DNA of 64,000 nt from Vibrio rarus. Its GTDB lineage: Bacteria > Pseudomonadota > Gammaproteobacteria > Enterobacterales > Vibrionaceae. A model generated the notes under the pieces. The model saw nothing but the letters and a program-made list of their open reading frames with translations. It did not search any database and had not been told where the DNA came from. Each line of letters starts with the position of its first letter. The first letter of the stretch is position 1. Made by a program: the position numbers and the translations under genes. The stretch is from positions 372,001 to 436,000 of the forward strand of contig NZ_AP024900.1 of NCBI RefSeq assembly GCF_024347075.1, in the 5' to 3' direction. Of this stretch, positions 518-56,427 are shown one piece after another.

Positions 518-912
<395 letters not shown>

Positions 913-981
913 ATTCGTAAGTGTTTGTTTACGTTGAAGTTTGTTACTCATGTATTTCTCTGTCACACAGAAAGGTACACA

Positions 982-1287
982 ATGAAATACATTCAACAGC
1001 GTAAGCAAACGTATTACTTTCGCTTAAAACTCCCTCAGTATCTCCAGTTTAAATTCAAAAATAGTGAAATAGTTCGCTCATTAAATACAGACTCATACAG
1101 TATGGCATGCTATAAGGTGACTAAGAAATTACCTGCCATAAATAGCTTCCTAAATATGCCATTAGACCTCACAAACGAACTAGAAGAGCTTTTCAAAGAG
1201 CTTACTGATTTCTCTACTATAGACCAGTGGACGGTAAGCGTACCACTACAAACTATAAAACGACGTACAAAGAAAATTCAGACTTGA
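982..1287 (+). pseudogene. Tyrosine-recombinase (phage-type integrase) N-terminal fragment
   Basis: About 100 residues starting MKYIQQRKQTYYFRLKLP. The pattern of short basic start, TYYFR, then LP..L and RSLNTDS with alternating hydrophobics resembles the N-terminal DNA-binding region of integrases that read YxR(R)G.YYFR..(V/L)P. The R-H-R-Y catalytic domain is absent; the frame ends at 1287, close to where IS6-like transposase sequence begins. The start ATG at 982 has an AAAGG ribosome site, so it was chosen over the ATG at 901, which lies inside the repeat. It sits at the island's left end, where an element's own integrase is normally found. The assignment rests on the N-terminal pattern only. 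Confidence 0.6.
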
Positions 1288-1290
1288 AAG

Positions 1291-1692
1291 CTATGCAATC
1301 AGACTCTTCGTGGCAGGTTGATGAAACCTACGTCAAGGTAAAAGGGAAATGGCATTATCTGTACCGGGCTATCAACAAGCAAGGCGAGACACTAGACTTT
1401 TATTTCTCCCATAAACGCAATAAATTATCAGTTCCTGAAGCGGTGCCTGTGTCACTATCCAAAAGAGTTACAGCTTCAAACATTAAACACCGACAAGCAT
1501 TCCTCATATGCAAATGCAATTACCCGCTTGAAGAAGGAGGGACGACTTCGATTGGACGTCGAGCAACGACAAGTAAAGTACCTCAATAATGGGGTTGAAT
1601 CCGATCACGCCCCCATTAAGACGCTTTTTGTAGGTTCAGGCAGATTTATAATACGAAAGAGAGCCTGGTCAACCGTAAAGGTAACGCAATGA
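1291..1692 (+). pseudogene. IS6-family (IS26-like) transposase remnant, frameshifted
   Basis: The first part (frame of 1227) reads SSWQVDETYVKVKGKWHYLYRAINKQG, the DDE-domain start of IS6-family transposases including the first catalytic Asp. The frame then shifts by one base around 1450-1490. It continues as NTDKHSSYANAITRLKKEG, then QRQVKYLNNGVESDHAPIK, then a short tail to TGA at 1690. NTD and the ESDH region carry the second Asp and the Glu. The N-terminal helix-turn-helix and part of the central region are missing, and I could not find clear terminal inverted repeats. The element is dead. Family assignment is confident from the three motif blocks. Confidence 0.85.
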
Positions 1693-1786
1693 GGTTATCA
1701 CTTAACTCAAGTCGAGTTCTGACTCGCCAGATTTCCTCTAGTCTAAATGGCTTTTTGACACCTGTATATCTACCTTTTTTAGTAAT

Positions 1787-2590
1787 TTACTGAGGCTGAC
1801 GTTTCATATCGTCATGAACCATGGGATTGTCCAGTTCATGTATAGTACCGATACGCACACGTTTATCCGGTGCCAGCTTTTCGTATTCAGTGAGATAGAT
1901 ATCGCTGTGAATATGCTCGGCAATCATTTTCACCAACAGACGATTGTTGGTATATAAGCCTACAGTCTCTTCTCGATGAGAGAACATTAAGCCCTGTTTC
2001 ATATCGGCAACAATCATAAAGCGGTGGGAAGGATACGCGGTCTCTTCATTATCTGAGCGAGTGTAGAGCTCAATTTTGGGATGAGGTACCGCGATGCGAT
2101 TAAATGAGAAGGTGATAATTCGCACTCCACGCTCAGCCGCCTCAATCAATTCTGCTGAGAATCTCGGGTCAAGTTGAAAGTCGGTGTTGAGGTAAATTTC
2201 TACCTGAGCTAACTCGATCACCTCTTGGGCTTTCTGGACTAAGTTGTCGATACCAGTGACGTTGTACACAAACTCTTTTTCCTCAGTGATCATCATTCGT
2301 GACAACTCTTTCTTAAGGATATGGATGTTTTCTACGGTACTCTTTTCGATTTGGTTAAAGATAAGCTCTGGAGATTTGGCTTCGTACTCTTTCGTGTCTC
2401 CATCGGACATAAAGATATAACCATTTTTGTATAGGTTATCGATGGAAGAGTAGACAGAAGAACGCGATAGAGAGATATCTTTCGCGATTTTGTAGCCACT
2501 GGCACAACCGTTTTTTAGAAGGTTGATATAGACCAAGGAATCCGTCTTCGTAAAACCAAAATTCATCAACTTAGTAACCAAGTCTGACAC
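1787..2590 (-). CDS. TrmB-family sugar-responsive transcriptional regulator
   Basis: A 267-residue protein. The N-terminal winged helix (residues ~1-75) reads LMNFGFTKTDSLVYINLLKNG, the TrmB-type start. The recognition region (S.SSVYSSIDNLYKNGYI) is followed by a coiled stretch, and then a phospholipase D-like C-terminal domain (~100-245) like the effector-binding part of TrmB. TrmB proteins control maltose/maltodextrin transporters, best known in archaea. I chose the GTG at 2590 because AGAGGA lies six bases upstream; a TTG at 2614 would add eight residues. It is the last gene of the leftward operon. The palindrome at 8704-8734 is a candidate operator. The target is inferred from context. 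Confidence 0.8.
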   Translation of the reverse strand: MSDLVTKLMNFGFTKTDSLVYINLLKNGCASGYKIAKDISLSRSSVYSSIDNLYKNGYIFMSDGDTKEYEAKSPELIFNQIEKSTVENIHILKKELSRMMITEEKEFVYNVTGIDNLVQKAQEVIELAQVEIYLNTDFQLDPRFSAELIEAAERGVRIITFSFNRIAVPHPKIELYTRSDNEETAYPSHRFMIVADMKQGLMFSHREETVGLYTNNRLLVKMIAEHIHSDIYLTEYEKLAPDKRVRIGTIHELDNPMVHDDMKRQPQ

Positions 2591-2653
2591 GGTTTGTCCT
2601 CTAAAATTATTCAATATTGTGTTCCACTTTGGTTAGATTATCACTGGTTAAGC

Positions 2654-3544
2654 TCAGAGCCTAACTTGAGGTGCAAGTAGCTGCGCTTTTGTTTGAACTG
2701 CTCCGCGAGCAAGAGAAAAATCGTCATAGGGCAAACTTAACGCTTCCGGTAATGACACATTGTTACCACAACGACTGAGTGTGACCTTAAGGTCACTTGT
2801 AAGAGTGGAGTAGCGCGACACGCTGCCAAGTATTAGCAAACTTCTGGGCAAGCTATTTTCGATATGAGGCTTGAACGCTAGCCTCATATCGATGTTGCGT
2901 TGATAGGTACGTGCGGTAATAGGGTCTCCTGATTCTAATGCGCAGAATATCTCTTTTACATTGGGGCGTTTAAGCAGGATTTGCTCATACTGTCGCTCCA
3001 ATCCTGAAACCGAAACAAACTGTTCAGTACACGCTTCATTCGCACAACTGCAGCTAGTAACGAGACCATCAAGGACAAAGTCGTAGTCCGGAAGATCGAC
3101 ATATGCGCAGGGAATCGCTCGTATGGTACGTTGAGAAATACTTCGACGAGTTCTACTGCAAGAGTAGAGCTCGCACTCGTTATCGAGTACAACGCACAAC
3201 TCTTCTCTGAGTTTTATCTGCGATAAGACATCAGGTGAACTCTGTAAACCAGCTTCGATAAAGTTACTTTTGCTGCAAGGGATTCGATAGTGCTGTTCAA
3301 TCAGGGTGGATAACGCCAATTGATGACGCTCAAGCCAGATTTGAACTTCCTCTGTTATCGCTAACCCAATCGAACAGAATGTACTGTATGCCCATTGAAA
3401 GTTTTCGACTAGCTGAAACACCAGCTGTTTAACTTTCAGCGCGGTCTGATTGAGGCCTTGCTGACTCAAATATACAGTATTGAGATGCTCATCAAGCATC
3501 GTCGCCTTTAGTTGAACTTTATCTATTGAGATCTCCAGATGCAT
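2654..3544 (-). CDS. Degenerate ROK-family protein, probably a sugar sensor rather than a kinase
   Basis: About 296 residues with ROK (repressor/ORF/kinase) character. The cysteine-rich metal motif survives as SCSCANEACTEQ (C-x-C-x4-C), and the C-terminal half reads like the ROK lobe. The N-terminal phosphate-binding DxGGT loop is replaced by SIDKVQLKA, and the usual NDA catalytic segment reads LDNECEL, so sugar kinase activity looks lost. No N-terminal helix-turn-helix is present. The start at 3544 has AGGAG upstream; a longer frame from 3598 would overlap the preceding gene. It lies between the hydrolase and the TrmB regulator, which suggests a role in sensing or regulation. Function is inferred. 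Confidence 0.6.
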   Translation of the reverse strand: MHLEISIDKVQLKATMLDEHLNTVYLSQQGLNQTALKVKQLVFQLVENFQWAYSTFCSIGLAITEEVQIWLERHQLALSTLIEQHYRIPCSKSNFIEAGLQSSPDVLSQIKLREELCVVLDNECELYSCSRTRRSISQRTIRAIPCAYVDLPDYDFVLDGLVTSCSCANEACTEQFVSVSGLERQYEQILLKRPNVKEIFCALESGDPITARTYQRNIDMRLAFKPHIENSLPRSLLILGSVSRYSTLTSDLKVTLSRCGNNVSLPEALSLPYDDFSLARGAVQTKAQLLAPQVRL

Positions 3545-3557
3545 ACTTTCTCCTTGC

Positions 3558-5327
3558 TTAGTCGTACCAGTAACCGTAAGCAGATAAACTGATGCCACGA
3601 TTATCTAGCGTTACGCTAGCCGGAGAATCGCTATTGTTGATCAGGAAGCGTCTTGAGCCGCGTTGATAGCCGACAACGCTAGGATGATGAGTCTCTATCC
3701 AGTCGATGTATGGTTGATTAAAGCTGTCATCGCTTTTTCTTAACTCGATCATTTGTTCAATGAAGATTTTGAAATCGAGTTCAGTCTGGTTTGGAGACCA
3801 GTTCATACAGCGGCGATTATCTTCAAGTCCCATGCCTTTTCTCCCTTCCATCGCGACTTCGCCGCCATAGTAAATACAGGGAGCGCCAGATTGAGTGAAC
3901 ATAAACAGATACGCTAGCTTCGCCCGACGAAGATCGTTACCGCAAAGACTAATCAGGCGGGTGGTATCGTGGCTTTCAAGTAAATTAAACATCGCTTCAT
4001 TAACGTTGCGTGGATAAGCCAGATAAGCGCTGGTGACTGTCTCCATAAACTGCTGTTTGTTATGAGCATCAAGGGCAAAGTAATCGGTAATGGCCTGAGT
4101 CATAGGGTAGTTCATTAACGAATCGAACTGATCACCACGCAACCATGGCATACCTTCGTGCCAAATCTCCCCCAGAATGTAGCAGTCTGGTTTTACCTGC
4201 TTAACTACGTTGCGAAACTCACGCCAGAACTGGTGGTCAACTTCATTGGCGACATCCAGTCTCCAGCCGTCGATGTCGAACTCTTCTACCCAGTAGCGAG
4301 CGACATCTAACAGGTATTCACGACATGGCTGATGTTCAGTGTTGAGTTTTGGCATCTCAAGTACGTTGCCAAACGTTTCGTAGTTGAAGTTCCAGCAGTC
4401 CCACTTCGATTTGTCAGTGTCGGGATAAACGGGGAACTGATTGATCCAGAACCAGTCTGCGTATTGAGATTTTTCGCCGTTTTTAACCACGTCTAACCAG
4501 AACGGGTGTTGATCGCCGATGTGATTGAACACCGCGTCGAGCATAACTTTCATGCCTCGATCATGCGCCTCTTTAATCAGAGCTCTGAATGCTTCATTAC
4601 CGCCAAAGTGAGGATCGACATTGAAGTAATCAACCGTGTCGTACTTATGGCTGGTATTGGCAGTAAAAACTGGGCACAGATAGAGTCCGTTGACCCCCAA
4701 ATTTTTCAGATAATCGATATGTTCGATTACGCCCCATAAGTCACCGCCCATAAAGTTACTTGAGGTTGGTACGCTTCCCCATGGCTCAGCATTTTTCGGA
4801 CTTATTTCTGGTCTGCCGTTGGCAAATCGTTCAGGGAAGATCTGATACCAAACGGTTGACTTGGCCCATTGTGGAGTGACCAGAACATCTTTTGGGTTGA
4901 TATAAGGGAAGCAGAAGAAATTACTCAGATTGCTAAGCTCAATTTCTTCCGCTGCCTTGCTGTCTAAATCAACGGTACGTTTCTCGCCAAACAGTATTTT
5001 TTCACCATCTTTTCCGTAGAGAATAAAACCGTAACGACTGCGGCGTTTAGGCGGTATAAATTGCGCAAACCAGTGGTCGTGATGTTCGGTGACACCTTCT
5101 CGTTCCATTACAACTTCGTTGCCACCGACCCAGCCATGAGCATCGCTGCCGCCGAGGTTACCACCGTCTAAGCCTCCTTCTGCCCAGTGATAAGGGTCAC
5201 CTATCCATAAGCTAACGCGCTCAACTTCGTCTTTGGCACATTTAAGTCTCAGGTGCAGAGTCTGCTCATCGTAAGCGTAGCTGTCGGCACTTTTCAGTGT
5301 ATGTGTTAGTGAGCTTCGGGTAATCAT
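3558..5327 (-). CDS. Cyclomaltodextrinase/neopullulanase-type GH13 alpha-glucosidase
   Basis: A 589-residue cytoplasmic enzyme without signal peptide. Residues ~1-130 form an N-terminal beta domain typical of GH13_20 enzymes (cyclomaltodextrinase, neopullulanase, maltogenic amylase). The TIM barrel then shows YQIFPERFANG, DAVFNHIG, DGWRLDVANEVDH (nucleophile Asp ~357), ILGEIWHE (acid/base Glu ~386) and ESHDTTR (third Asp ~453). All catalytic residues are present. In such systems the enzyme opens cyclodextrins or cuts maltodextrins after import. It lies directly downstream of the permease genes (17-bp gap), in the same leftward operon. Substrate choice among this subfamily cannot be fixed from sequence alone. 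Confidence 0.92.
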   Translation of the reverse strand: MITRSSLTHTLKSADSYAYDEQTLHLRLKCAKDEVERVSLWIGDPYHWAEGGLDGGNLGGSDAHGWVGGNEVVMEREGVTEHHDHWFAQFIPPKRRSRYGFILYGKDGEKILFGEKRTVDLDSKAAEEIELSNLSNFFCFPYINPKDVLVTPQWAKSTVWYQIFPERFANGRPEISPKNAEPWGSVPTSSNFMGGDLWGVIEHIDYLKNLGVNGLYLCPVFTANTSHKYDTVDYFNVDPHFGGNEAFRALIKEAHDRGMKVMLDAVFNHIGDQHPFWLDVVKNGEKSQYADWFWINQFPVYPDTDKSKWDCWNFNYETFGNVLEMPKLNTEHQPCREYLLDVARYWVEEFDIDGWRLDVANEVDHQFWREFRNVVKQVKPDCYILGEIWHEGMPWLRGDQFDSLMNYPMTQAITDYFALDAHNKQQFMETVTSAYLAYPRNVNEAMFNLLESHDTTRLISLCGNDLRRAKLAYLFMFTQSGAPCIYYGGEVAMEGRKGMGLEDNRRCMNWSPNQTELDFKIFIEQMIELRKSDDSFNQPYIDWIETHHPSVVGYQRGSRRFLINNSDSPASVTLDNRGISLSAYGYWYD

Positions 5328-5343
5328 AAATTCGATCCTGTTG

Positions 5344-6177
5344 TTATTCTTTTACTGCACCACTCACTAAGCCTGTGGTGATGTGTTTTTGAGTCGCGAC
5401 AAAAAGCAGAGTGATCGGTATTGCTACCAGCAGAGAGCCGGCGGCAAACAGAGTAAAGTTTTCGGCCGAGTTAGAGGTGATCCAACTGAAAATACCAATA
5501 GCCAGAGTCATTTTTTCTTCACTGCGTAAGATCAGAGTTGGCAGAATGAAGTCCATCCACGGGCCAGTAAATGACACGAGAGCGACAAATACCAAGATCG
5601 GCCTCGCCAGAGGTAAGATGATCTCGATAAAAATAGTCATATGCCCTGCACCGTCGATTTTTGCTGCCTCATCGAGCGAAGTCGGAATCGCGTCAAAGTA
5701 GCCCTTCACTAGCCAAGTCATAAACGGTAACGAGCCAGCGACGTAGACAAACAACAAACCGGCATAGGTATCGATCAGGTTGAGTTTCGATAGCAGGATA
5801 TAAATCGCTGTCATCGATAAGAAAGCAGGGAACATCTGCAATACCAGCACCCCCATCAAGACATTGCGTTTGCCTTTAAATCGATAGCGTGAGAACACGT
5901 AAGCAGTCATGGTGACCACCACCAGAGAAATCAGCATATTCGCCGTTGCCAGAGCGAAGGTGTTGAGATACCACTGCAGGTAAGGGGTATCCTGAAACAG
6001 CGCCACATAATGCTCTAGTGAAAAGCTCCAGCCAGAAAACGAAGAGCTGAACATATTGCTACCCGGTTTGAAGGACGCCAATACTGTCCAGATAACCGGT
6101 CCTAAAACCAGTAATGCATTGGTTAACAGGAACAGATAGACCAAACCTGTGGCTAATTTTTGCAACAGAAACTTCAT
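5344..6177 (-). CDS. MalG-type ABC sugar transporter permease
   Basis: A 277-residue inner-membrane protein with six predicted helices. The cytoplasmic EAA loop (LDEAAKIDGAGHMTIFIEIILPLARP) that docks on the ATPase is intact. It has the C-terminal SGAVKE ending of MalG-type subunits. Its start overlaps the MalF-type stop by one base (TAATG), indicating translational coupling. It should pair with the 6177-7463 permease, the 7467-8693 binding protein and the ATPase at 11781-12920 encoded in the divergent operon. The substrate is inferred to be a maltodextrin or cyclodextrin from the neighbouring hydrolase. Confidence 0.93.
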   Translation of the reverse strand: MKFLLQKLATGLVYLFLLTNALLVLGPVIWTVLASFKPGSNMFSSSFSGWSFSLEHYVALFQDTPYLQWYLNTFALATANMLISLVVVTMTAYVFSRYRFKGKRNVLMGVLVLQMFPAFLSMTAIYILLSKLNLIDTYAGLLFVYVAGSLPFMTWLVKGYFDAIPTSLDEAAKIDGAGHMTIFIEIILPLARPILVFVALVSFTGPWMDFILPTLILRSEEKMTLAIGIFSWITSNSAENFTLFAAGSLLVAIPITLLFVATQKHITTGLVSGAVKE

Positions 6178-7463
6178 TACTTCATCCCCACATCATCGTT
6201 AAACGAAGACATCCGTCGGAACTGCCAGATCGCAATCACTGACAAGAACAAGAAAATAATTATCGAAATCACAGAGGCGATTTGGTACTGCTGGAAGTCG
6301 AGTGTGAGTTTGTAAATCCAGGTAATTAAGATGTCGGTATGCCCTGCAAATCGGTACTCTGGATTGATCGGTCCGCCTGCGGTTAACAGGAAAATTGCGC
6401 CAAAGTTATTGAAGTTATGGGCAAACGTCATCACCAGAGAAGGAGCGACCTGATGCAACACCATCGGGAGGGTGATTTCCCTGAACTGCTGGAACTTGTT
6501 GGCGCCATCGACCTCACTAGCCTCATAAAGGTCTTGAGGAATGTTGGTTAAGGCTCCTGAAATAAGCAGCATGAAGTAGGGAGCACCGACCCAGACGCTG
6601 ACCGCTATCACCGTGACTTTCGCCATCCATGGATCGGAGAGAAAAGCAACGGAATCAAAGCCCCAGCTATTCAGGGTCGTATTGACCGGACCGACACCAT
6701 TTAATAGCAGTCGGAACATCAGCAGAGTAACGAAAGCGGGAATCGCATAAGGCAAGATAAAAACGAAGCGCCACGCTTTTTTTGCTTTGATGTTCTTGTT
6801 GGACAACGCCAGTGCCAGCACAAAACCAAAACCACAGGTACAGATAGTCGCCAGAATGGCCCACATCACTGTCCAGGTTGCTACGCCAATAAAGGTATTC
6901 GACCAAATTCGCAATTCAAACAGGGCGATAAAGTTCTTAAACCCGACCCAGTCAACCAAGTTCCGTGGCGGAATATGATAAGGCGCTGAGTAGTTGGTAA
7001 ATGAGACCAGTACGGTGATGACAATCGGCATAATGATAAAGGCGATACTGGTTAACATTGCCGGAGAAAGAACCAGCAAAGCAAACTGTCGGTCATATAT
7101 CGCTTTGATCTGCTCGGACGCTGAAACCTGACAAGGCTGGCAGGACTTGGCATCATTGATGTTAAGTGCGTAAAGGCAAAGAAAAACAAACACCGCGATC
7201 AGAGCAATCACACCTTCAACCAACAGGAAGACAGAGTGATCGCCCTGAATGATGGTGAAGCCTTCGCGTGTCTGAGCCACATCGCCGAGAGTAATGAGCT
7301 GCTTTAACGCTAGGCTAAGCTCTGGAATGTTAAAGATAAAAAGTAGCTGAATGAACAACCAGACCAAGCCTTTTACCCAATGGCCCTGACGCATTTGCGT
7401 CAGGCCCATGATAAGAACTGAAGCGTTGATCATTGGTTGCATTCGAGTTTGAGACAACAACAT
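6177..7463 (-). CDS. MalF-type ABC sugar transporter permease
   Basis: A 428-residue membrane protein. Extra hydrophobic segments at the N-terminus (~15-125) precede the six-helix transport core, as in MalF-type subunits, although the large MalF periplasmic P2 loop is not present. The EAA loop reads LYEASEVDGANKFQQFREI. The start ATG has AGGAG seven bases upstream. It sits three bases after the binding-protein gene and overlaps the MalG-type gene by one base, so the three are one transcription unit. It forms the heterodimeric channel with its neighbour. Confidence 0.93.
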   Translation of the reverse strand: MLLSQTRMQPMINASVLIMGLTQMRQGHWVKGLVWLFIQLLFIFNIPELSLALKQLITLGDVAQTREGFTIIQGDHSVFLLVEGVIALIAVFVFLCLYALNINDAKSCQPCQVSASEQIKAIYDRQFALLVLSPAMLTSIAFIIMPIVITVLVSFTNYSAPYHIPPRNLVDWVGFKNFIALFELRIWSNTFIGVATWTVMWAILATICTCGFGFVLALALSNKNIKAKKAWRFVFILPYAIPAFVTLLMFRLLLNGVGPVNTTLNSWGFDSVAFLSDPWMAKVTVIAVSVWVGAPYFMLLISGALTNIPQDLYEASEVDGANKFQQFREITLPMVLHQVAPSLVMTFAHNFNNFGAIFLLTAGGPINPEYRFAGHTDILITWIYKLTLDFQQYQIASVISIIIFLFLSVIAIWQFRRMSSFNDDVGMK

Positions 7464-7466
7464 CTC

Positions 7467-8693
7467 TTACTCCTGTAAACTGATCTGTTCTTTGATCACT
7501 GACACGGCACGCTTTAACACCTTCTCTGGTGACTTGTCATTGACCCATAATGAAGTCATGGCACTTGCCATTGGTGACCACAAGTAACCCATTTCAGGAA
7601 TTGACGGCATAGCGTCGGCGAAGTAACCCTGACCGATGATCGCATAAGTAGCTTCATCAGCATCGTCGATGATTTCCTCCATAACAGCCTGAACTGGTGG
7701 GATCGATTTCGTCATCTCGTAGCGTTTTTTAAGCATCTTATCGCTACTTAGGTAGCTGGCAAAAAGTTGAGCGGCTTTAGGATAGTTGGTGAAAGAAGAA
7801 ACGACCGCCAGACGAACTGTTGAGAAGGTTCGTGGTTTCTTGCCATCTAGAGTTGGAATTGGAATGACGCCATAGTTCACTCCGGAAGCCTCGTAGCCTT
7901 GAATTGCCCACGGACCATCGATGATTGCTGCGACCTTACCTTCACTGAACAAACCTCGTCTTACCTGAGGGTTACGCATATCCATTGGGTTAGCACTGTT
8001 TGCGGCCTGTAGCTTTTTCATCGCTTCTAAGCCTTGCTGTGCTTGCTCCGAGGCGATGCCGATATCTTTGGCATTGGTGCCGTTATCGCCAAATTCGTAA
8101 GCTCCATATAGGGTCAGGAACATGCGTGATTCATAGTAATTCTGCACGTCCCAAAGCAGGGCATATTTGTGCTCTTTGGTGTCATTAAATGACTTAGAGA
8201 ACTCAATGATCTGTTCAAAAGACTCAGGAGCCTGTGGCAGAAGATCCTTGTTGTAGAACAGAGCGATAGTGGCAAAACTTACCGGGAAGCCGTAGCTTTT
8301 ACCCTCAGAATTTGCTGCGTTGACCGCACTTTGTAAGAAGTGGGCGTTGATGTGGTCAGCAGAGACCAGATTTTCCATCGCACCACCGGCTACGACTAAG
8401 CGACCAAGCAGGTCATGCTCAATTTCAGCCACATCAGCGACTCGAGCTGAGCCTCCATCCTGAATTAATCGTGAAGCGGCATCAATCGGTGCCAGTCCAC
8501 GGAAAGTGAACGCCACCTCATAGCCCGAATCCTGATTGAACTGGTTGGCGGCGTACTTCATGTAATCGACGGTTGTGTGATCGGTCCAGACTAACAGATT
8601 TGCGCCTGGTTCCGGTTCAATCGGCTGTGCCATGGCAGTGGCGCCAACAAGAGTGGTGAGCAGTATTTGACTGGTCAATAACTTGGTTTTCAT
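7467..8693 (-). CDS. Periplasmic maltooligosaccharide-type binding protein (MalE-like)
   Basis: A ~408-residue extracytoplasmic solute-binding protein of family 1. A signal peptide (MKTKLLTSQILLTTLVGATAMA, cut near residue 22) is followed by LLVWTDHT, FPVSFATIALFYNKDLL, KVAAIIDGPWAI and the C-terminal FASYLSS region typical of MalE-like proteins. The ATG at 8693 was preferred over an upstream TTG at 8705 because it begins the signal peptide. It is the first gene of the leftward operon, immediately behind the palindrome at 8704-8734, so it is probably the main regulated gene. It would deliver linear or cyclic glucans from the periplasm to the permeases. Confidence 0.92.
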   Translation of the reverse strand: MKTKLLTSQILLTTLVGATAMAQPIEPEPGANLLVWTDHTTVDYMKYAANQFNQDSGYEVAFTFRGLAPIDAASRLIQDGGSARVADVAEIEHDLLGRLVVAGGAMENLVSADHINAHFLQSAVNAANSEGKSYGFPVSFATIALFYNKDLLPQAPESFEQIIEFSKSFNDTKEHKYALLWDVQNYYESRMFLTLYGAYEFGDNGTNAKDIGIASEQAQQGLEAMKKLQAANSANPMDMRNPQVRRGLFSEGKVAAIIDGPWAIQGYEASGVNYGVIPIPTLDGKKPRTFSTVRLAVVSSFTNYPKAAQLFASYLSSDKMLKKRYEMTKSIPPVQAVMEEIIDDADEATYAIIGQGYFADAMPSIPEMGYLWSPMASAMTSLWVNDKSPEKVLKRAVSVIKEQISLQE

Positions 8694-8703
8694 TGCTGCA
8701 TCC

Positions 8704-8734
8704 AATTTAGTAGTTCACGATATACTACTAAATT
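8704..8734. promoter_or_regulatory. Perfect inverted repeat, candidate operator of the island sugar operons
   Basis: AATTTAGTAGT (8704-8714) and ACTACTAAATT (8724-8734) are perfect 11-bp complements separated by nine bases. The site begins 11 bases before the ATG of the binding-protein gene. It therefore overlaps its leader or transcription start and could block expression when bound. The island's own TrmB-family regulator is the natural candidate ligand, by analogy with maltodextrin control by TrmB. A partial half-site (ACTACTTTAAAT, near 9022) lies in front of the divergent channel gene. The palindrome is seen; its regulator is inferred. Confidence 0.6.
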
Positions 8735-9082
8735 GAGGCGGATAGAGATTTTAGTCAATTGAAAACTGCTTAAAATAGCGTCTAAGTGTGATCTGAGTCG
8801 ACTAAAGTGCTTGTTTTACAACGGGTTGAAGCCGGTTTTGTCTTGCTTGTATTCTTATTGTTAGTTTTGTTTTTAATGGCTATCAACTCGAATTGATCAC
8901 TGTTTTTAGTGACTAACTTCAAATTATTGTCCGGATTCGAGTGACCGACATCTCATTTAAATCCCATTCAGCGAGCAAATAATACTCAGATGCAGAACAA
9001 TGGCTAGGCGTTCAGGCTGAACTACTACTTTAAATCCGATTAATATCAATAGAATCCACCTCTATGAGGTTAAGGAAACACT
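8735..9082. promoter_or_regulatory. Divergent promoter region between the two sugar operons
   Basis: About 350 bp without a credible ORF, between the leftward binding-protein operon and the rightward channel operon. It is AT-rich and must hold both promoters. I could not assign unambiguous -35/-10 pairs. A half-site resembling the 8704-8734 palindrome lies near 9022, about 60 bp before the channel start codon. A TAAGGA ribosome site precedes the GTG at 9083. Confidence 0.5.
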
Positions 9083-10120
9083 GTGAATAGGACTGTACTC
9101 TCGCTCAGTATTGCTTGCGCTCTGAGCTCTGCACCTGCTGCTTTTGCTGTGGAACATGGACCTGCTCCCCAACAAATGGGCGGTAATATTCTAACTCAAG
9201 CCTTAGATTTTGGCGGCCATGTTGGAACGTCGATTGAAATTGAAGACAAAGATATTACCAACTTCAAAACCTGGGGGGGGCAGACAGAAAATGAACGCAC
9301 TACCACCCATGAAGTGATGGGACTGTTTTATAAAAACGCCCACTGGAACTTCTCGTCTTTGTACGCTTTTAAGCTGACTGACCGTGTTAAACGCAGTCAG
9401 GATCGCTCGTACACGGAAACGGAAGATGGTTATAAGCACCTGATTTCGATTAATAAAAAGTTCTCATTACCGAACGGTTTTGAAACTGGCGTTATCTATG
9501 ACCTTGAATACTCACTGGGTACTATTGCGACCACTGCTGGCGTGAGCAACCTGCGTACTACCAATGCAGAACACAGCATTCGCCCTTATTTCAACTTTTA
9601 CAGCAATAAGTACGATGGAGGCTTCCAGTCCAACCTTGAATACCTCTACAACGATGAAGATAAATCGGCGTGGGGTACTCGAGTTGAAGAAGGTTACTCG
9701 GTGTTAGTTAGGCCCTATAAACGTTTTGGTAACTGGGAGTTGGGTGTAGAGTTCTACTACCAGGTTAAAGACAACAAAGCGCATAACAGTGATGGCTCAA
9801 TTAACGAAATGAGTGACTTTACTGAAAAGTATGTTGAGCCAATCGTGCAGTACAGCTTTGAAGATGCTGGCACCTTATACGTTCGTGCTCGTTACGGTGA
9901 AAACGAAACCAAACATACACAAGGTTGGGCTTCAGGAGAGGAGTACTTTAAAGATATTCGTAAAGCCACTATTGGTTACGAACAGTCTGTCGGTGATAAC
10001 TGGTTGCTGAAAGGTGAGTACGAGTGGGCCAAAGATACTGAAACCTTCACTCAGCTTGCTGGAGAGGAGAAGGTCGTTGAGCAGAACACCTTCTTTCTCC
10101 AGGCTATTTATCGTTTGTAA
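9083..10120 (+). CDS. Outer-membrane channel, probable oligosaccharide porin (CymA/OmpG-like in role)
   Basis: A 345-residue protein with a signal peptide (MNRTVLSLSIACALSSAPAAFA) and alternating aromatic/polar strands through the whole mature part. Examples are WNFSSLYAFKL, GGFQSNLEYLYN, WELGVEFYYQV, GTLYVRARYG and NTFFLQAIYRL. These look like a 12-14-strand monomeric beta-barrel. The final residue is Leu rather than the usual Phe or Trp. The size and location beside a cyclodextrin/maltodextrin importer recall CymA, the cyclodextrin channel of Klebsiella, but I do not claim direct homology. It starts with GTG behind TAAGGA. It is the first gene of the rightward operon. Confidence 0.75.
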   Translation: MNRTVLSLSIACALSSAPAAFAVEHGPAPQQMGGNILTQALDFGGHVGTSIEIEDKDITNFKTWGGQTENERTTTHEVMGLFYKNAHWNFSSLYAFKLTDRVKRSQDRSYTETEDGYKHLISINKKFSLPNGFETGVIYDLEYSLGTIATTAGVSNLRTTNAEHSIRPYFNFYSNKYDGGFQSNLEYLYNDEDKSAWGTRVEEGYSVLVRPYKRFGNWELGVEFYYQVKDNKAHNSDGSINEMSDFTEKYVEPIVQYSFEDAGTLYVRARYGENETKHTQGWASGEEYFKDIRKATIGYEQSVGDNWLLKGEYEWAKDTETFTQLAGEEKVVEQNTFFLQAIYRL

Positions 10121-10148
10121 AAATCGTTTATTTGCTTAAGGAAATCCT

Positions 10149-11174
10149 ATGATCACAGTTTTAGAAATTGCCCAGTTAATTGGCGGCCAGATAGATGGTG
10201 ACCCGAGTTTAACTGTGGATACGGTTGTGCCGCTGAATAGCCTTGATGAAGGGGGATTAGCTATCGTATTTTCTAAAGCTGAACTCAAAATGATCGAAAG
10301 TTCAAAAGCGGACGTGATCATAGGACCTGCAAGCATTTTAACCAGCAACGCCAGATGTAAGATAGTGATTGAGTCGCTTAAAGCGCAAACACTGAATGCC
10401 CTGCTACGTTATTACAAAGTACATAAGTATCAACTGTTTGAGCAGGGTAATACCTCAGACAATCCCGATGTCTATATCGGCAAGCACTGCACTATTGGCA
10501 ACAACTGCCACTTTATGCCTGGCGTAAAAATCATGAATGGTGTGACCATTGGCGACAATGTTGCTATTCATGCCAATACGGTGATTAAAGAGGGCACGGT
10601 GATTGGCAATAACGTTACTATCGACTCCAATAACGCCATCGGTAATTTCAGCTTCGAATATATGAATGGCCAACATGGCGAATTTGAACGAGTGGAAAGT
10701 GTCGGACGAGTTATCATCGAGGACGATGTTGAGATCGGCTGTAACAACACCATAGATCGCGGCACTCTGGGAAATACCGTGATTGGCAAAGGGACTAAGA
10801 TAGATAACCTGGTCCAGATTGGTCATGACTGCAAAGTGGGCCAGCATTGTCTGCTGGTTTCTCAGGTAGGTTTAGCCGGACACACAGTTCTTGGTCATCA
10901 TGTCATTGTCCACGGACAGGCAGGCACCGCTGGCCATATCACTATCGGTGACCACTCAGTCATTAAAGCTAAATCAGGCGTCAGCCAGTCATTTCCTGCT
11001 CATAGCGATCTATTTGGGTACCCAGCCAAAGATGCTCGTGCTTATTACAAAAACCTGGCGGTGCTGAACAAGCTTACCCGCCAGTTTGATAGCAAAAAAC
11101 AATCTAAAACTACGCCAAAATCTGACCAGCCTAGCCACTGGCTTAAACGCTTATTCACTGGCTATAAGGCCTAA
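10149..11174 (+). CDS. LpxD-like UDP-3-O-acylglucosamine N-acyltransferase paralogue
   Basis: A 341-residue protein with the LpxD layout. An N-terminal uridine-binding domain (~1-95) leads into a left-handed beta-helix of hexapeptide repeats (~100-290; [35 protein letters not shown]), and a helical tail ends it. The segment [14 protein letters not shown] keeps the QIGH(N/D)C motif bearing the LpxD catalytic His. LpxD adds the second hydroxyacyl chain to UDP-GlcN in lipid A synthesis. The housekeeping lpxD normally lies with fabZ and lpxA, which are not here, so this is probably a second copy. It sits 28 bp after the channel gene, a surprising place. It could instead acylate another amino sugar. 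Confidence 0.85.
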
Positions 11175-11192
11175 TTCAATTGTTAAGGATTT

Positions 11193-11678
11193 ATGATGAA
11201 AAAAGTTATTCTACCTCTGTTACTCAGTGTTTTTGCTGCTGGCTGTTCCAGCACCAGTGAAAATACCAACCAAGTTATCTCGACGAATACGGATAGTCTG
11301 CTGGCGAAATGTGATTTGCCAACGGTTGAGGATCGCGGTCCGATTCGTCCGTCACTGTTTGTAGTCGGAACCTTTGATCAAGGTCATTGGATTCACCTGG
11401 AAGATCGCGAAATGAGCCATAAGGGCAATGGCATCTATCAGGTTGTTCATCAAGAGAAAGCCGGTGTGGTTAATGTCCAGTTTGCAACCATGAACTGGAA
11501 CCCGCAATTCACAGTGTCGGGACGCGAAATGGGCGTCAATCAGGAAATCGCTTTGAAGCGCGGTGGTTTTGCTAAAAACACCCGGGTCGAAATCCCTGCT
11601 GATGGCGAGTATGTCTGGTCAATTCAAATTGGCGAAGATAAAAAGCCAATTCGTGCCATGATTGCCACTTGTCAGTAA
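11193..11678 (+). CDS. Small lipoprotein with a possible starch-binding-like fold
   Basis: 161 residues with a lipoprotein signal (MMKKVILPLLLSVFAAGC; Cys at ~18). The mature part contains SLFVVGTFDQGHWIHLEDREM, then HKGNGIYQVVHQEKAGVVNVQFATMNWNP. This matches the rhythm of X25/CBM-like modules of amylases (GxFNxW...GdGxYxxxxxLxxGxxxFKxA). If so, it is an envelope-anchored glucan-binding protein aiding uptake. It sits 18 bp after the LpxD-like gene in the same operon. The lipoprotein call is firm; glucan binding is inferred from weak pattern similarity plus context. Confidence 0.6.
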   Translation: MMKKVILPLLLSVFAAGCSSTSENTNQVISTNTDSLLAKCDLPTVEDRGPIRPSLFVVGTFDQGHWIHLEDREMSHKGNGIYQVVHQEKAGVVNVQFATMNWNPQFTVSGREMGVNQEIALKRGGFAKNTRVEIPADGEYVWSIQIGEDKKPIRAMIATCQ

Positions 11679-11780
11679 TACCGTGCCGCTAGAGTTATTC
11701 TGGCGGCTTTAAGTTCATCGCTTAATGCACAAAGGTTGTGCCGTAAGTTATGAGTTTATAAAACTTTATTTGGAGTACCC

Positions 11781-12920
11781 ATGGCAACAGTTAGCCTAAA
11801 ACAAGTAGAAAAACAGTATGACAACGGCTTCAAGGCGGTACACGGGATTGATCTCGAGATCAATGAAGGTGAATTCATGGTGTTTGTCGGCCCATCAGGC
11901 TGCGCTAAATCGACCACATTAAGAATGATTGCTGGTCTTGAATCGATTTCATCTGGTGATGTTCATATAGGTGATCGCAGAGTCAATGATTTACCACCGA
12001 AAGATCGCGGAATCGCGATGGTGTTTCAAAATTACGCTCTTTACCCGCACAAGACAGTTTTCGACAACATGGCTTTCGGTCTAAAGATGGCGAAGAAGCC
12101 TAAAGATGAAATTAAGAGAATGGTTGAAGAAGCGGCAGAGAAATTAGAAATCACTGATCTGCTCTATCGTAAACCAAAAGAGATGTCTGGTGGTCAGCGT
12201 CAGCGTGTGGCGGTTGGTCGCGCTATTGTTCGTAAACCGGATGTATTTCTATTCGATGAGCCCCTATCGAATCTGGATGCCAAGCTGCGTGTGTCTATGC
12301 GGGTGAAAATCGCCCAGCTTCATCAGTCTCTTAAGGATGAAGGCAATCCGGCAACCATGATTTATGTGACCCACGATCAGACCGAAGCGTTGACGCTCGG
12401 TGACCGTATTTGTGTTCTGAATCAGGGCAAAATCATGCAGGTTGATACGCCAGTGAACCTTTACAACTACCCAGCTAATCGCTTTGTCGCAAGCTTTATC
12501 GGCTCTCCGGCAATGAACCTGGTCGATACAGCGCTGCGTCGTAATGGCGAGAATCTTATCGTCGAAATTGCACCGTCTGCCCGCATTCTTATCCCGAAAG
12601 CAATACAAGCAGAGCTTGAACAGTACGTCGATAACCCAGTCTGCTTTGGTATCCGTCCGGAGCATATCTCACTGGCACAAGAGAATGAAACACTGAATAC
12701 CTTCGAAGGCAAGCTGTCGGTCGTTGAGAATCTGGGTAATGAAAAATACCTCTACTTCACTGTTGGTGGTAACGAGTTGATTGCTCGCGTGCAAGATCAG
12801 TCGATCACGACAGCAGACATTGGGCGAACTTTCCTATTCAACCTCAACACTGAATTCTGCCATATCTTCGATTTTAACAATGAAAAAAACCTAATTCACA
12901 GCCGACCCTACTCGGCTTAG
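11781..12920 (+). CDS. MalK-type ABC transporter ATPase
   Basis: 379 residues. The nucleotide-binding domain (~1-235) has Walker A GPSGCAKSTT (Ala where most MalK proteins have Gly), Q-loop VFQNYALYPHKTV, signature MSGGQRQRVAVGRA, Walker B VFLFDEPLSNLDAKLR and switch YVTHDQTEA. A C-terminal OB-like regulatory domain (~240-379) is typical of MalK/UgpC-type subunits. It would power the MalF/MalG-type permeases of the opposite operon. A 102-bp gap separates it from the lipoprotein gene, and TGGAG stands before the start. Carrying the ATPase in the divergent operon means that both operons must be expressed for transport. Confidence 0.93.
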   Translation: MATVSLKQVEKQYDNGFKAVHGIDLEINEGEFMVFVGPSGCAKSTTLRMIAGLESISSGDVHIGDRRVNDLPPKDRGIAMVFQNYALYPHKTVFDNMAFGLKMAKKPKDEIKRMVEEAAEKLEITDLLYRKPKEMSGGQRQRVAVGRAIVRKPDVFLFDEPLSNLDAKLRVSMRVKIAQLHQSLKDEGNPATMIYVTHDQTEALTLGDRICVLNQGKIMQVDTPVNLYNYPANRFVASFIGSPAMNLVDTALRRNGENLIVEIAPSARILIPKAIQAELEQYVDNPVCFGIRPEHISLAQENETLNTFEGKLSVVENLGNEKYLYFTVGGNELIARVQDQSITTADIGRTFLFNLNTEFCHIFDFNNEKNLIHSRPYSA

Positions 12921-12946
12921 TTAATGACAATAACGGGGAACCTCTA

Positions 12947-13318
12947 ATGACAACACGGATACTGATTTGCAGCGTTCTGCTTGCGACGCTGGCCATAGGC
13001 GGCGGATTTTAGGCACCAGCAATAAGTGCAGAAACCGCGGCTGACAGCAGCGACGATTTCAGGCTGGAAACTATCTATTTCGTCTTCTTAGATCGATTTA
13101 GTGATGGCGATGCGACAAACAACAGTGGTAATAACCCATTGACGTACGACCCTAACAACCTCAAGAAGTATGTGGGTGGTGACACTAGAGGTTTGATCAA
13201 CAAGCTGCCGTATCTCAAATCTCTCGGTATCACTGCGATATGGATTACTCCGACGGTAGATAATGCCGACAACCTTGATGTTAGTGGTGGGCTGGCGGGA
13301 GTCCATTTGCCCATCTAA
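12947..13318 (+). pseudogene. Truncated cyclodextrin glucanotransferase/alpha-amylase-like gene
   Basis: The frame begins ATG at 12947 with a signal-peptide-like start (MTTRILICSVLLATLAIGGGF), then meets an in-frame TAG at 13010. It continues as a secreted GH13 N-terminus: ETIYFVFLDRFSDGDATNN, then KYVGGDTRGLINKLPYLKSLGITAIWITPTVDN. These match the start of cyclodextrin glucanotransferases and related secreted amylases (Y..FVDRFSDGD..NN, Y.GGDW.GIINKI..L..LGITAIWI). The frame ends at 13318 before any catalytic residue, so at least 80% of the gene is lost. It lies 27 bp after the ATPase gene as the operon's last member. Confidence 0.8.
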
Positions 13319-13520
13319 CTTATTGATTTGTAATAGCTTAAGTGTCCTGATGATTGTTTGGGTATAAATTGTGTAATAATCAATTTTTCATACCTACTCG
13401 TGAGGTTGATCACTTAATTTAAGGTGTTATGCACCGATGAAAGCCCGTTTAGTTCCTTATTTGTCAGTTAAACTCCGTTAATTCTGTGTCCAGGTTTTTT
13501 GGTGTGGCTCATACTTCCCT
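13319..13520. other. Non-coding right end of the rnpB island
   Basis: About 200 bp of AT-rich sequence between the broken amylase-like gene and the right attachment repeat. No convincing ORF, terminator or IS end was found. It would be expected to contain recombinase arm-binding sites, but none can be recognised without the cognate enzyme. Confidence 0.5.
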
Positions 13521-13542
13521 GCTTATAGGTATGCTCCACCTC
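13521..13542 (+). repeat. Right attachment-site repeat (attR), copy of the rnpB 3' end
   Basis: Exact 22-bp copy of 891-912, two bases before the A-tract of the terminator at 13545. Upstream of it the sequence does not resemble rnpB, so it is an isolated copy of the RNA gene's tail. This order marks the right junction of the island. Confidence 0.88.
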
Positions 13543-13544
13543 TT

Positions 13545-13575
13545 AAAAAAGCCCCGCCTTAAAGCGGGGCTTTTT
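13545..13575 (+). terminator. Rho-independent terminator, presumed original rnpB terminator
   Basis: GCCCCGC (13551-13557) pairs with GCGGGGC (13564-13570) and is followed by five T residues; six A residues stand before it. It directly follows the rnpB-tail repeat. Before island insertion it would have lain 2 bp after the rnpB 3' end. Confidence 0.9.
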
Positions 13576-13731: not shown

Positions 13732-14682
13732 ATGAGCGATACCTTTAAACACGTCTCCGTTTTACTGGAAGAATCCATTGATGGTTTAAACATCAAGCCT
13801 GATGGCACTTATATTGATGGCACTTTTGGTCGAGGCGGTCATAGCCGAACCATATTGTCTAAATTGGGTGAAAACGGTCGATTGTTTAGTATTGATAGGG
13901 ATCCTCAAGCCATTGCCGAAGCCGCTAAAATTGAAGATCCTAGGTTCACCATCATCCATGGTCCGTTTTCTGGTATGAAAGAATACGCTGAAGAACGATC
14001 TTTGGTGGGACAAGTGGACGGTGTGTTATTGGATCTCGGGGTATCTTCACCGCAATTAGATGATGCGGAACGTGGCTTTAGCTTTATGAAAGACGGCCCG
14101 CTAGATATGCGTATGGACCCAACGTCGGGCATTCCAGTGTCGCAGTGGTTAATGGACGCGGATGTAGAAGATATTACTTGGGTCATTCGTGAGTTTGGTG
14201 AAGATAAGCATGCATGGCGAATAGCCAAAGCCATTGTCGCGTATCGTGAAAATGAAGAAAACGAGCCGCTACTTCGCACCGGTCAACTTGCCAAGCTGAT
14301 CTCCGAAGCTGCCCCTAAAAGTTTTAAAGAGAAGAAGCACCCAGCAACGCGCTCTTTCCAAGCCTTTCGTATTTACATCAACAGTGAATTAGATGAGATT
14401 GCCACCGCGTTAAATGGCGCTAAAGATATTTTAGCCCCAGAAGGGCGTTTGTCTGTGATTAGCTTCCACTCTTTAGAAGACCGCATGGTGAAGCAATTTA
14501 TTCGTAAAGAAAGCCGTGGCCCACAAGTCCCTCATGGCATACCGATGACAGAAGAGCAGATTCGAGCTCTAGGTAGTGCGGCGATGAAAGCGGTAAGCAA
14601 GGCCATTAAACCCTCCACTACAGAATTGGATGTAAATATTAGAGCAAGAAGCTCAGTACTGAGAATTGCGGAAAAACTATGA
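13732..14682 (+). CDS. rsmH: 16S rRNA (cytosine-1402 N4)-methyltransferase RsmH (MraW)
   Basis: 316 residues, family length. It N4-methylates C1402 of 16S rRNA, the same nucleotide that RsmI 2'-O-methylates. Motifs: HVSVLLEE at the N-terminus, SAM-binding [12 protein letters not shown] (~27-38), [17 protein letters not shown] (~97-113), [16 protein letters not shown], and the C-terminal [14 protein letters not shown]. It is the first gene of the dcw run here and overlaps ftsL by 4 bp (ATGA). Confidence 0.98.
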
Positions 14683-49689: not shown

Positions 49690-50219
49690 AGGTAAATCCT
49701 TCCAATCTAATGCGACAGTGGGAGTCATCCCATGCCATTCCTTATAATTGTCTTAATATAGGGCTAATGTGTGTATTAGCCTGCATCCATTCAGTCTCTC
49801 GCTGAAAAAGTTGCGAGAAAAACATTCCTTGGTCATTTCCAGTATTTAGCTTCTGATTCTTAGAGCCTTATAGAGGTAGGGTAGGAATATGACCGACTAT
49901 TAGTCTAAATTGAGCACTATAACTGGATCTAATTTAGGCAATAGTTGTAACTATCCTACAATTTTGTCTAGCTTAATTCCAACTAAAGTTGCACCAAAAT
50001 GGATTTTTTCTGAACAGGTACGAGTTGTATTTAGGTAGCTTTATTGCGTTTCTATGCACATGCATTATATAGGATGAATATTTAGTGTGAAAAATCCCCT
50101 TCGATATAAGAAATTGCGGTGTTAAAATGCGCGACCCGTTCATATATAGAATATAGGGATGTAATTTAGTTTCACGACAGGCTGTCAACCGTATAACAAT
50201 TTCATAGGTTACGATTCCA
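49690..50219. promoter_or_regulatory. Divergent gltB/yhcC intergenic region
   Basis: About 530 bp without a credible ORF. A perfect hairpin GGCTAAT/ATTAGCC (49762-49781) lies in the presumed gltB leader. The rest is AT-rich and should hold the gltBD and yhcC promoters, but I could not assign elements. Glutamate synthase operons are commonly controlled by Lrp-type and nitrogen regulators, for which AT-rich upstream DNA is expected. Confidence 0.45.
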
Positions 50220-56276: not shown

Positions 56277-56345
56277 ATGAATACACGTAGCCTGATTACC
56301 ACAACGATTATTACCAGCACCATTAGTGTTGGGGCAGGCTGCTGA
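56277..56345 (+). CDS. thrL: thr operon leader peptide
   Basis: A 22-codon ORF, MNTRSLITTTIITSTISVGAGC, with six Thr and five Ile codons. Like enterobacterial ThrL, it should sense charged tRNA-Thr and tRNA-Ile and control formation of the attenuator at 56361-56398. It stands ~80 bp before thrA. The call rests on codon content, position and the terminator directly after it. Confidence 0.88.
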   Translation: MNTRSLITTTIITSTISVGAGC

Positions 56346-56360
56346 AAGAAACATTTTACA

Positions 56361-56398
56361 AAAAAGGCCTGTATCTCACCAGATACAGGCCTTTTTTT
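56361..56398 (+). terminator. Attenuator terminator of the thr operon
   Basis: AGGCCTGTATCT (56365-56376) pairs perfectly with AGATACAGGCCT (56381-56392) around CACC, followed by seven T residues. It lies 15 bp after the thrL stop and 29 bp before thrA, as transcription attenuation requires. Confidence 0.92.
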
Positions 56399-56427
56399 AT
56401 TACAATTTTTAGCTCATGGAGAATGGA

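What the first reader, a model, noticed from the sequence alone, without database searches (positions are those of the whole stretch)
891..13542. Genomic island inserted into the 3' end of rnpB, bounded by exact 22-bp repeats
The rnpB tail at 891-912 is repeated exactly at 13521-13542, directly before a terminator of the type that follows rnpB. An integrase fragment lies just inside the left end. RNA genes such as tRNAs and tmRNA are known island targets; use of RNase P RNA is much less often noted. The insertion separates an essential RNA from its terminator by 12.6 kb, so rnpB 3' processing may now depend on island sequence.
Basis: partly seen in the sequence, partly recalled or inferred. 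Interest (0 to 1): 0.72.

Follow-up and report, generated by a model that had tools for sequence, protein, structure and literature searches.

The report
Sugar-gene island in RNase P RNA gene
A 12.6-kb block of starch-ring (cyclodextrin) uptake genes sits in a marine bacterium's chromosome exactly at the end of the gene for an essential RNA, RNase P RNA, put there by a family of DNA-inserting enzymes that uses the same spot in several other bacteria, E. coli included.

Summary
rnpB ends at 911/912; its last 22 bases (891-912) recur exactly at 13521-13542 and nowhere else in the genome. The empty site exists: in 126 of 126 same-genus genomes compared, rnpB and rsmH lie 177-780 bp apart, against 12,846 bp here; near relatives run rnpB tail, terminator, rsmH unbroken. 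The island is a decayed mosaic: 81 N-terminal residues of a ~500-residue tyrosine integrase, an IS6-family transposase fragment, an 11.6-kb cyclodextrin/maltodextrin cluster (95% identical to one at another locus of another species), a broken amylase gene and a 225-bp element end. Related integrases directly follow rnpB in Agarivorans, Shewanella, Methylophaga and E. coli (matches in 34 of 5,426 genomes; rnpB adjacent in 10 of 10 opened). The E. coli cases include the flk flagellin islet, so the kind is known; this is a new Vibrio member with new cargo. The elements bring a hairpin just after rnpB that, here and in E. coli, pairs into the start of the integrase reading frame; the three E. coli versions show three compensatory changes. 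Its function is untested.

The parts
518..911 (+). rnpB, RNase P RNA (class A)
   Evidence: Rfam RF00010, 324.9 bits, model 1-367
891..912 (+). attL: 3' end of rnpB (3' strand of helix P1), left copy of the 22-bp repeat
   Evidence: exact repeat; P1 strand by Rfam alignment
917..1017 (+). long hairpin: left arm 917-936 just after rnpB, right arm about 997-1017 inside the first integrase codons
   Evidence: RNA fold z -5.37 (100 nt) and -5.52 (140 nt) against dinucleotide shuffles; not seen when only 70 nt are folded (z 0.30)
982..1224 (+). N-terminal 81 codons of a tyrosine integrase (DUF6538 domain); the rest is lost
   Evidence: Pfam PF20172 E 1.5e-10; 47% to G300, 44% to S. saliphila, 37% to Agarivorans integrases
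1226..1690 (+). fragment of an IS6/IS240-family transposase, frameshifted, both ends missing (borders approximate, overlaps the start of the cargo match)
   Evidence: Pfam PF13610 E 1.2e-19; translation in three frames with stops shown, further motifs read by eye
1677..13295 (.). cargo block: cyclodextrin/maltodextrin uptake and breakdown cluster
   Evidence: 95.25% identical over 11,630 bp to G062 (L143), 89.6% to G101 (L144), 82.1% to G022 (L145), none of them beside rnpB
1787..2614 (-). TrmB-type sugar-sensing regulator
   Evidence: Pfam PF01978 E 3.5e-14
2654..3598 (-). ROK-family-like protein
   Evidence: Pfam PF00480 E 2.1e-6
3558..5327 (-). cyclomaltodextrinase/neopullulanase-like glycosidase
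   Evidence: Pfam PF00128 and PF02903; best NCBIfam NF041090 cyclomaltodextrinase, below its cut-off
5344..8705 (-). MalG-, MalF- and MalE-like ABC transporter proteins
   Evidence: NCBIfam matches PRK10998 (best), PRK10999 (best) and PRK09474 (second to GanS), all below equivalog cut-offs; solute-binding Pfam for the last
9083..10120 (+). CymA cyclodextrin porin
   Evidence: Pfam PF16941 E 1.3e-157 over the full length
10149..11174 (+). LpxD-type acyltransferase gene inside the sugar cluster
   Evidence: TIGR01853 above its cut-off, 256.3 against 242.5 bits
11193..11678 (+). small protein, lipoprotein-like by eye, no family
   Evidence: no Pfam or NCBIfam match
11781..12920 (+). MalK/UgpC-type ABC ATPase
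   Evidence: Pfam PF00005, PF17912; NF008653 above cut-off
12947..13295 (+). broken secreted alpha-amylase-type gene: in-frame stop after 21 codons and cut at about 13295
   Evidence: sequence; the homologue in G062 is an open 654-aa frame with Alpha-amylase and starch-binding domains
13296..13520 (.). right end of the element
   Evidence: no second copy in the genome apart from the repeat; 13285-13329 is 80% identical over 46 nt to sequence beside a tmRNA-type end in L006; partial matches in 2 of 195 other genus genomes
13521..13542 (+). attR: right copy of the 22-bp repeat
13546..13575 (+). displaced native rnpB terminator
   Evidence: fold z -4.85; its counterpart follows rnpB directly in relatives
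13732..14682 (+). rsmH, right neighbour of rnpB in relatives

Best explanation
An integrative element whose tyrosine integrase recognises the last ~20 bp of rnpB recombined its own copy of that sequence (attP) with the chromosomal one (attB). Because attP repeats the end of rnpB, the RNA stayed complete, while everything after it, terminator included, was pushed to the far side of the element. This step is well supported by the exact repeat, the empty site in relatives and the same arrangement in other genera. Later the element was remodelled: the integrase was cut after 81 codons beside an IS6-family fragment, and an 11.6-kb cyclodextrin cluster shared with other species of the genus filled the inside (order and route inferred; IS6-type capture is my guess). 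The island is now stranded, since it lacks a working integrase. In the integrated state rnpB is followed by an element-borne hairpin instead of its terminator; I infer that it gives the transcript a 3' boundary and, while an integrase gene is present, folds over the integrase start and damps its translation from the rnpB promoter.
For: Exact 22-bp repeat, unique in the genome. Empty site in 126 of 126 genomes; joined flanks match the uninterrupted site of the six relatives tested at 86-89 positions of 102-104 aligned columns. Independent parallel: Agarivorans litoreus (G228) has rnpB, an intact 499-aa integrase of the same family, about 7.2 kb, then the 18-bp tail repeat, a terminator, mraZ and rsmH, and a same-genus relative (G204) has the empty site. 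Integrase directly after rnpB also in Shewanella japonica (G295), G300, S. saliphila and Methylophaga and in E. coli (10 of 10 opened regions of 34 matches). E. coli L171 and L174 show a 20-bp repeat of the rnpB end before a native terminator. E. coli L178 is a parallel decay: integrase frame cut by IS26, an IS6-family element. The cargo is 95% identical in DNA to G062 although rnpB DNA is 90% and RsmH protein 85% identical. Hairpins.
Against: The window has no intact integrase, so its specificity is inferred from an 81-residue fragment; that fragment has no significant match to the E. coli integrases as annotated (best E 0.13), whose annotated starts lie downstream of the corresponding region. 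Some relatives are not at rnpB: of the seven other hits, two lie beside tmRNA genes, one (L006) has a tmRNA-type end beside it by eye, and one (L051) is undetermined; the Klebsiella plasmid hit (L167) has no rnpB in the 8.9 kb fetched. No tail repeat was found in about 118 kb (S. japonica) and 98 kb (G300) downstream, so those right ends are unknown. The hairpin was found in the window only after the folded stretch was lengthened from 70 to 100 nt.
Confidence: 0.9

Rival explanations
1. The cluster arrived by homologous recombination or IS-mediated insertion and the 22-bp repeat is a leftover of a native rnpB tail duplication, not an attachment-site pair.
For: IS6 fragment beside the cargo; the cargo is found at loci without rnpB; native tandem partial rnpB-end repeats do exist, in E. 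coli (seen) and in G206 of the same order (second copy 141 bp on).
Against: In 42 of 42 same-genus loci checked, no second 14-mer of the own tail lies in the 1.5-2.4 kb downstream. An integrase fragment whose relatives abut rnpB in other genera lies about 70 bp inside the left repeat. The sequence before the right repeat is not rnpB-like, unlike the native E. coli repeats.
Confidence: 0.06
2. The island is a degraded prophage or an integrative conjugative element.
For: Tyrosine integrase and direct repeats are shared with both. A phage can lie at the rnpB end: viral contig L168 has rnpB, an unrelated-looking integrase ending about 30 bp from it in the opposite direction, and terminase and portal genes.
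Against: No phage or conjugation family among the island's larger ORFs (the two MalF/MalG ORFs only by NCBIfam). The Agarivorans integrase matches 22 of 50,697 phage records, all under 60% identity and none over 80% of its length; the ten listed are 24% over 59%. The L168 integrase matches this family only at 27% over 117 residues.
Confidence: 0.04

Closest known systems
flk flagellin genomic islet of E. coli (Feng et al. 2008, J Bacteriol 190:4470; title seen as a reference, content recalled)
   Same: Integrase gene directly after rnpB and right end before yhaC; ECC-1470, named as a flkA/flkB carrier in PMC5422975 (passages read), shows this layout. Recalled: excision, circular form and integrase function were demonstrated.
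   Different: Cargo (flagellin and repressor against cyclodextrin cluster); the Vibrio integrase is a remnant and cannot excise the island by itself.
tmRNA-targeting integrase islands, e.g. I23/I44/I55 of Pseudomonas fluorescens SBW25 (PMC12595487, passages read)
   Same: Tyrosine integrase next to the 3' end of a stable RNA gene, short direct repeats covering the RNA end, no genes for autonomous transfer.
   Different: Target RNA is tmRNA and the repeat is 14 bp; in the trees here the two tmRNA-type integrases (L055; L006 so labelled by eye) fall outside the group holding the rnpB-adjacent ones.
cym (cyclodextrin) gene clusters
   Same: CymA porin, cyclomaltodextrinase-like enzyme, Mal-type ABC transporter; the Klebsiella cym cluster itself is recalled, not compared.
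   Different: Contains an LpxD-type gene, and its secreted amylase gene is broken.

Membership tests
integrase-type genomic island at an RNA gene 3' end | direct repeats equal to the end of the target gene, one at each end of the island | tested here: met
   22-bp exact pair, unique in the genome
integrase-type genomic island at an RNA gene 3' end | uninterrupted site in relatives | tested here: met
   126 of 126 genomes compared, sequences
integrase-type genomic island at an RNA gene 3' end | target RNA gene left complete | tested here: met
   full-length RF00010 match 1-367; tail as in sister species G127 and G184
integrase-type genomic island at an RNA gene 3' end | intact integrase | tested here: not met
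   81 of about 500 residues remain; so a decayed member, not an active one
rnpB islets of the E. coli flk kind | integrase gene close after rnpB | tested here: met
   window start 982 is 70 bp after 912; in 9 of the 10 opened E. coli regions the annotated frame starts 224-290 bp after rnpB (in L178 annotated as hypothetical), in L172 663 bp with another frame between
rnpB islets of the E. coli flk kind | integrase related to the E. coli rnpB integrases | tested here: inconclusive
   the Agarivorans integrase matches 9 of 10 E. coli proteins at E 4e-77 to 5e-72 and the window fragment matches the Agarivorans one (E 2.8e-12), but the fragment against the E. coli proteins as annotated is not significant
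rnpB islets of the E. coli flk kind | excision as a circle by the integrase | not testable with these tools
   needs PCR; not expected without an intact integrase
prophage or ICE | phage structural or conjugation genes | tested here: not met
   none among the families found in the island

The most novel reading that the evidence does not exclude
Elements of this integrase family carry a portable 'RNase P RNA ending': a copy of the 3' strand of helix P1 followed by a hairpin whose second arm lies in the first integrase codons. On integration it replaces the host's rnpB terminator, in Shewanella and most of the E. coli islands read also the last bases of the ribozyme, and couples rnpB 3'-end formation to silencing of integrase translation, so an essential RNA's maturation and a mobile element's quiescence share one RNA structure.
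Probability: 0.3. Interest if true: 0.7.

Novelty: new member of a known kind. Interest (0 to 1): 0.5.

Why it matters
RNase P RNA is essential, so a site at its very end shows how mobile DNA can use an indispensable gene without destroying it. The comparison here suggests that one integrase family uses this site in several gammaproteobacterial genera, with cargo from flagellins to candidate defence genes to sugar uptake, and that at least one phage with another integrase may do so too. The TIGER/Islander resource sorts island sites into tRNA/tmRNA, protein-coding and intergenic (passages read), so such islands would probably be booked as intergenic. If the element-borne hairpin sets the 3' end of rnpB, about one E. 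coli genome in 160 (34 of 5,426 with a match) has the sequence after rnpB replaced and can be compared directly with its siblings.

Tried and rejected
P1 swap in the window: the 3' strand GGUAUGCUCC leaves two unpaired positions against the 5' arm, and I first took this for an element-made change; rejected because empty-site relatives G127 and G184 have the same tail. An element-borne classical terminator after rnpB in the window: none in 800-1800; the next plus-strand candidate, 3410, is one of 9 where 6.7 are expected by chance. Relatives of the integrase in 369 genomes of the class: none at E 1e-30, a call without a positive control, so it shows little. Viral contigs: protein search none; a motif search gave 7 stretches, none with rnpB; a second gave L168, with rnpB and a phage. 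Right ends of the S. japonica and G300 elements: not found. Of 51 motif hits in named genomes, 13 had an rnpB match; related integrase by tblastn in L079, L116 and, as a 24-residue start at a locus end, L095; a degenerate start read by eye in L120; none in the other nine. Literature: in the listings I saw no title or abstract start naming rnpB as an island site; I searched the text of 14 papers for rnpB and found it only as a marker, a listed RNA gene, a promoter, in reference titles, or not at all. The flk papers are not held, so this is no claim that the site is unpublished.

Rows left out of counts: I compared only genomes whose rows were printed in both (126 of the 195 with a match in each, own genome left out), best row per genome. 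In one search I left out L051 and four E. coli rows (L173, L174, L177, L178).

Full report
What is there. rnpB lies at 518-911. Its last 22 bases recur exactly at 13521-13542; the pair is unique in the 3.88-Mb genome, and the exact 22-mer is absent from the other 195 same-genus genomes searched. The second copy is followed by a hairpin with a T run (about 13546-13575) and by rsmH at 13732.

Empty site. For 126 same-genus genomes whose rnpB and rsmH rows were printed in both searches, the two genes are on the same contig and strand 177-780 bp apart, median 214; in the window the same measure is 12,846 bp. In the eight sampled relatives nearest in rnpB, the gene runs uninterrupted into a terminator-like hairpin (by eye) and rsmH (L037-L044). 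Joining 50 nt of each window flank gives 86-89 identical positions of 102-104 aligned columns in the six relatives tested. The closest, G127 (97% in rnpB), has the same unusual tail GGTATGCTCC, so the ribozyme's end was probably not altered by this insertion. No second copy of the own tail lies downstream in 42 of 42 same-genus loci checked.

Anatomy of the island. From left: hairpin 917-1017; integrase codons 1-81 (982-1224, DUF6538); IS6/IS240 transposase fragment to about 1690; cargo 1677-13295; an element end 13296-13520; the right repeat. The cargo encodes a TrmB-type regulator, a ROK-like protein, a cyclomaltodextrinase-like enzyme, MalE/F/G/K-type transporter proteins, the CymA cyclodextrin porin, an LpxD-type protein and a small protein without family; at its right edge a secreted amylase gene has an in-frame stop and is cut, while its homologue in G062 is open for 654 aa with amylase and starch-binding domains. 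The block is 95.25% identical over 11,630 bp to G062, 89.6% to G101 (on another contig than its rnpB) and 82.1% to G022, none beside rnpB, although RsmH is 85, 89 and 83% identical. A CymA relative was found in 32 of 196 genus genomes, own included. So the cargo also exists apart from the integrase; how it entered is inferred, with IS6-type capture the simplest guess.

The integrase family and its site. The window's fragment found one further genome of 196 in the genus and six further of 295 in the order. Of these seven, three lie directly after rnpB (G300, G228, G295), two are beside tmRNA genes (L054, L055), one (L006) has a tmRNA-type end next to it by eye, and one (L051) is undetermined. 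In Agarivorans the element is complete: rnpB, 499-aa integrase, a Mutator-type transposase, a HEPN protein with a GmrSD-like partner (the latter matches PADLOC models NsnA and PD-T4-2_A), a resolvase, a gene without family, then the 18-bp repeat, a terminator, mraZ and rsmH; G204 of the same genus has the empty site. A motif scan of named genomes added Shewanella saliphila, Shewanella sp. Isolate11 (start only), Methylophaga sp. 41_12_T18 and a Cellvibrionales MAG (remnant by eye) among 51 hits, 13 of them with rnpB. In trees of 58 and 63 integrases the rnpB-adjacent ones lie on one side of a supported branch from the two tmRNA-type ones, but most rows have unknown sites and the window row fills only 15-16% of the columns.

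E. coli. A 39% match in strain H240 turned out to follow rnpB. The same DNA, taken from the first base after rnpB, matches 34 of 5,426 complete E. coli genomes: 19 over at least 80% of it, 11 over 53%, three over 35% and one over 69 bases (19 by megablast). Thirty-one of the 34 matches begin at query base 1; I opened ten regions, including the three that begin at base 740 and the shortest, and all ten have annotated rnpB immediately before the element. Cargo varies: flagellin and repressor-type gene in four (L169, L170, L173, L175), restriction-modification genes (L172), an FRG-domain protein (L176), a phosphatase and a kinase (L177), others (L171, L174); in L178 the integrase frame is cut by IS26. 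In L171 and L174 a 20-bp copy of the rnpB end precedes a native terminator; of the other five loci read in that call, four showed only shorter matches or the native tandem repeats and L170 showed none in the stretch searched. ECC-1470 is described as carrying flkA/flkB on an islet (PMC5422975, passages) and is one of the hits. From memory, Feng et al. 2008 placed the flk islet between yhaC and rnpB and showed integrase-dependent excision; that paper could not be opened. Hence the site is known in E. coli.

A phage at the same place. Viral contig L168 holds a full rnpB (RF00010, 294.9 bits), an RNase II-type gene on one side and, on the other, a 386-aa phage integrase ending about 30 bp from the rnpB end in the opposite direction, then HNH, terminase and portal genes. 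No second tail copy is on the 10-kb contig, so the attachment site is inferred from adjacency alone. Its integrase resembles this family only at 27% over 117 residues.

What happens to the RNA's end. In the window and Agarivorans the attachment repeat covers the 3' strand of helix P1. In Shewanella the tail after GGCTTATCGG is element-like (GCTCATTGAA...) where the empty relative G200 has ACTCACCTC, so P1 becomes a host/element chimera; in S. japonica it has one unpaired position and two G-U pairs not present in G200 (pairs read by eye). In seven of the ten opened E. coli regions the tail reads CAGCTTCAACT, in three CAGTTTCACCT as in the native repeats; the first turns a G-U pair of P1 into G-C (by eye). 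In all ten occupied sites folded, the 140 nt after the rnpB core (150 for Methylophaga) fold more stably than shuffles (z -2.2 to -5.5); with 70 nt only, the window (0.30), Agarivorans (-0.17) and Methylophaga (-1.5) do not. In the window and Agarivorans the long arm pairs with the first integrase codons. In E. coli it pairs at 61-85 bases after rnpB, which is upstream of the annotated integrase start but inside the same open frame, right after possible start codons. The three distinct E. coli versions pair at 13 of 13 positions with three double-sided changes and one one-sided. Controls show that structure here is not special to occupied sites: native terminators of empty sites score -5.2 and -6.9 and a tmRNA-type integrase leader -4.7. 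Function is therefore a hypothesis; the step from structure to rnpB 3'-end formation or integrase silencing is inference.

Verdict. It is a decayed, composite member of an integrase-borne island class at the rnpB 3' end, already known from E. coli's flk islet, here extended to Vibrio with a new cargo. The element-borne RNA ending is the part worth testing.

Noticed in passing
L168:1896-9204: A viral contig has rnpB with a phage integrase about 30 bp from its 3' end in the opposite direction, plus terminase and portal genes: a second, unrelated-looking integrase lineage, this time of a phage, at the same RNA gene.
   Followed up: partly
window 10149-11174: An LpxD-type acyltransferase gene (above the TIGR01853 cut-off) sits inside the cyclodextrin cluster; the matched block in three other species spans it too.
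   Followed up: no
window 13285-13329: 80% identity over 46 nt to sequence beside a tmRNA-type end in L006, as if a piece of a tmRNA-targeting element were built into the right end of this rnpB island.
   Followed up: partly
L059:5101-6986: The Agarivorans rnpB element carries a HEPN protein (RiboL-PSP/MAE_28990) with a GmrSD-N partner matching PADLOC models NsnA and PD-T4-2_A: a candidate defence pair.
   Followed up: partly
[not shown]
   Followed up: partly
L059 about 2040-2080 and 9070-9130; L053: GGTACACA repeats lie before the integrase start and again near the right end of the Agarivorans element; similar TACACAA motifs precede other integrases of the family and may be arm-type binding sites.
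   Followed up: no
L159 (G206): A native second copy of the rnpB tail lies 141 bp after the first in G206, like the tandem rnpB-end repeats seen in E. coli.
   Followed up: partly
window 49735-49837 and 56283-56399: Ordinary cis-regulatory RNAs elsewhere in the window: a gltS RNA (minus strand) and a threonine operon leader.
   Followed up: no
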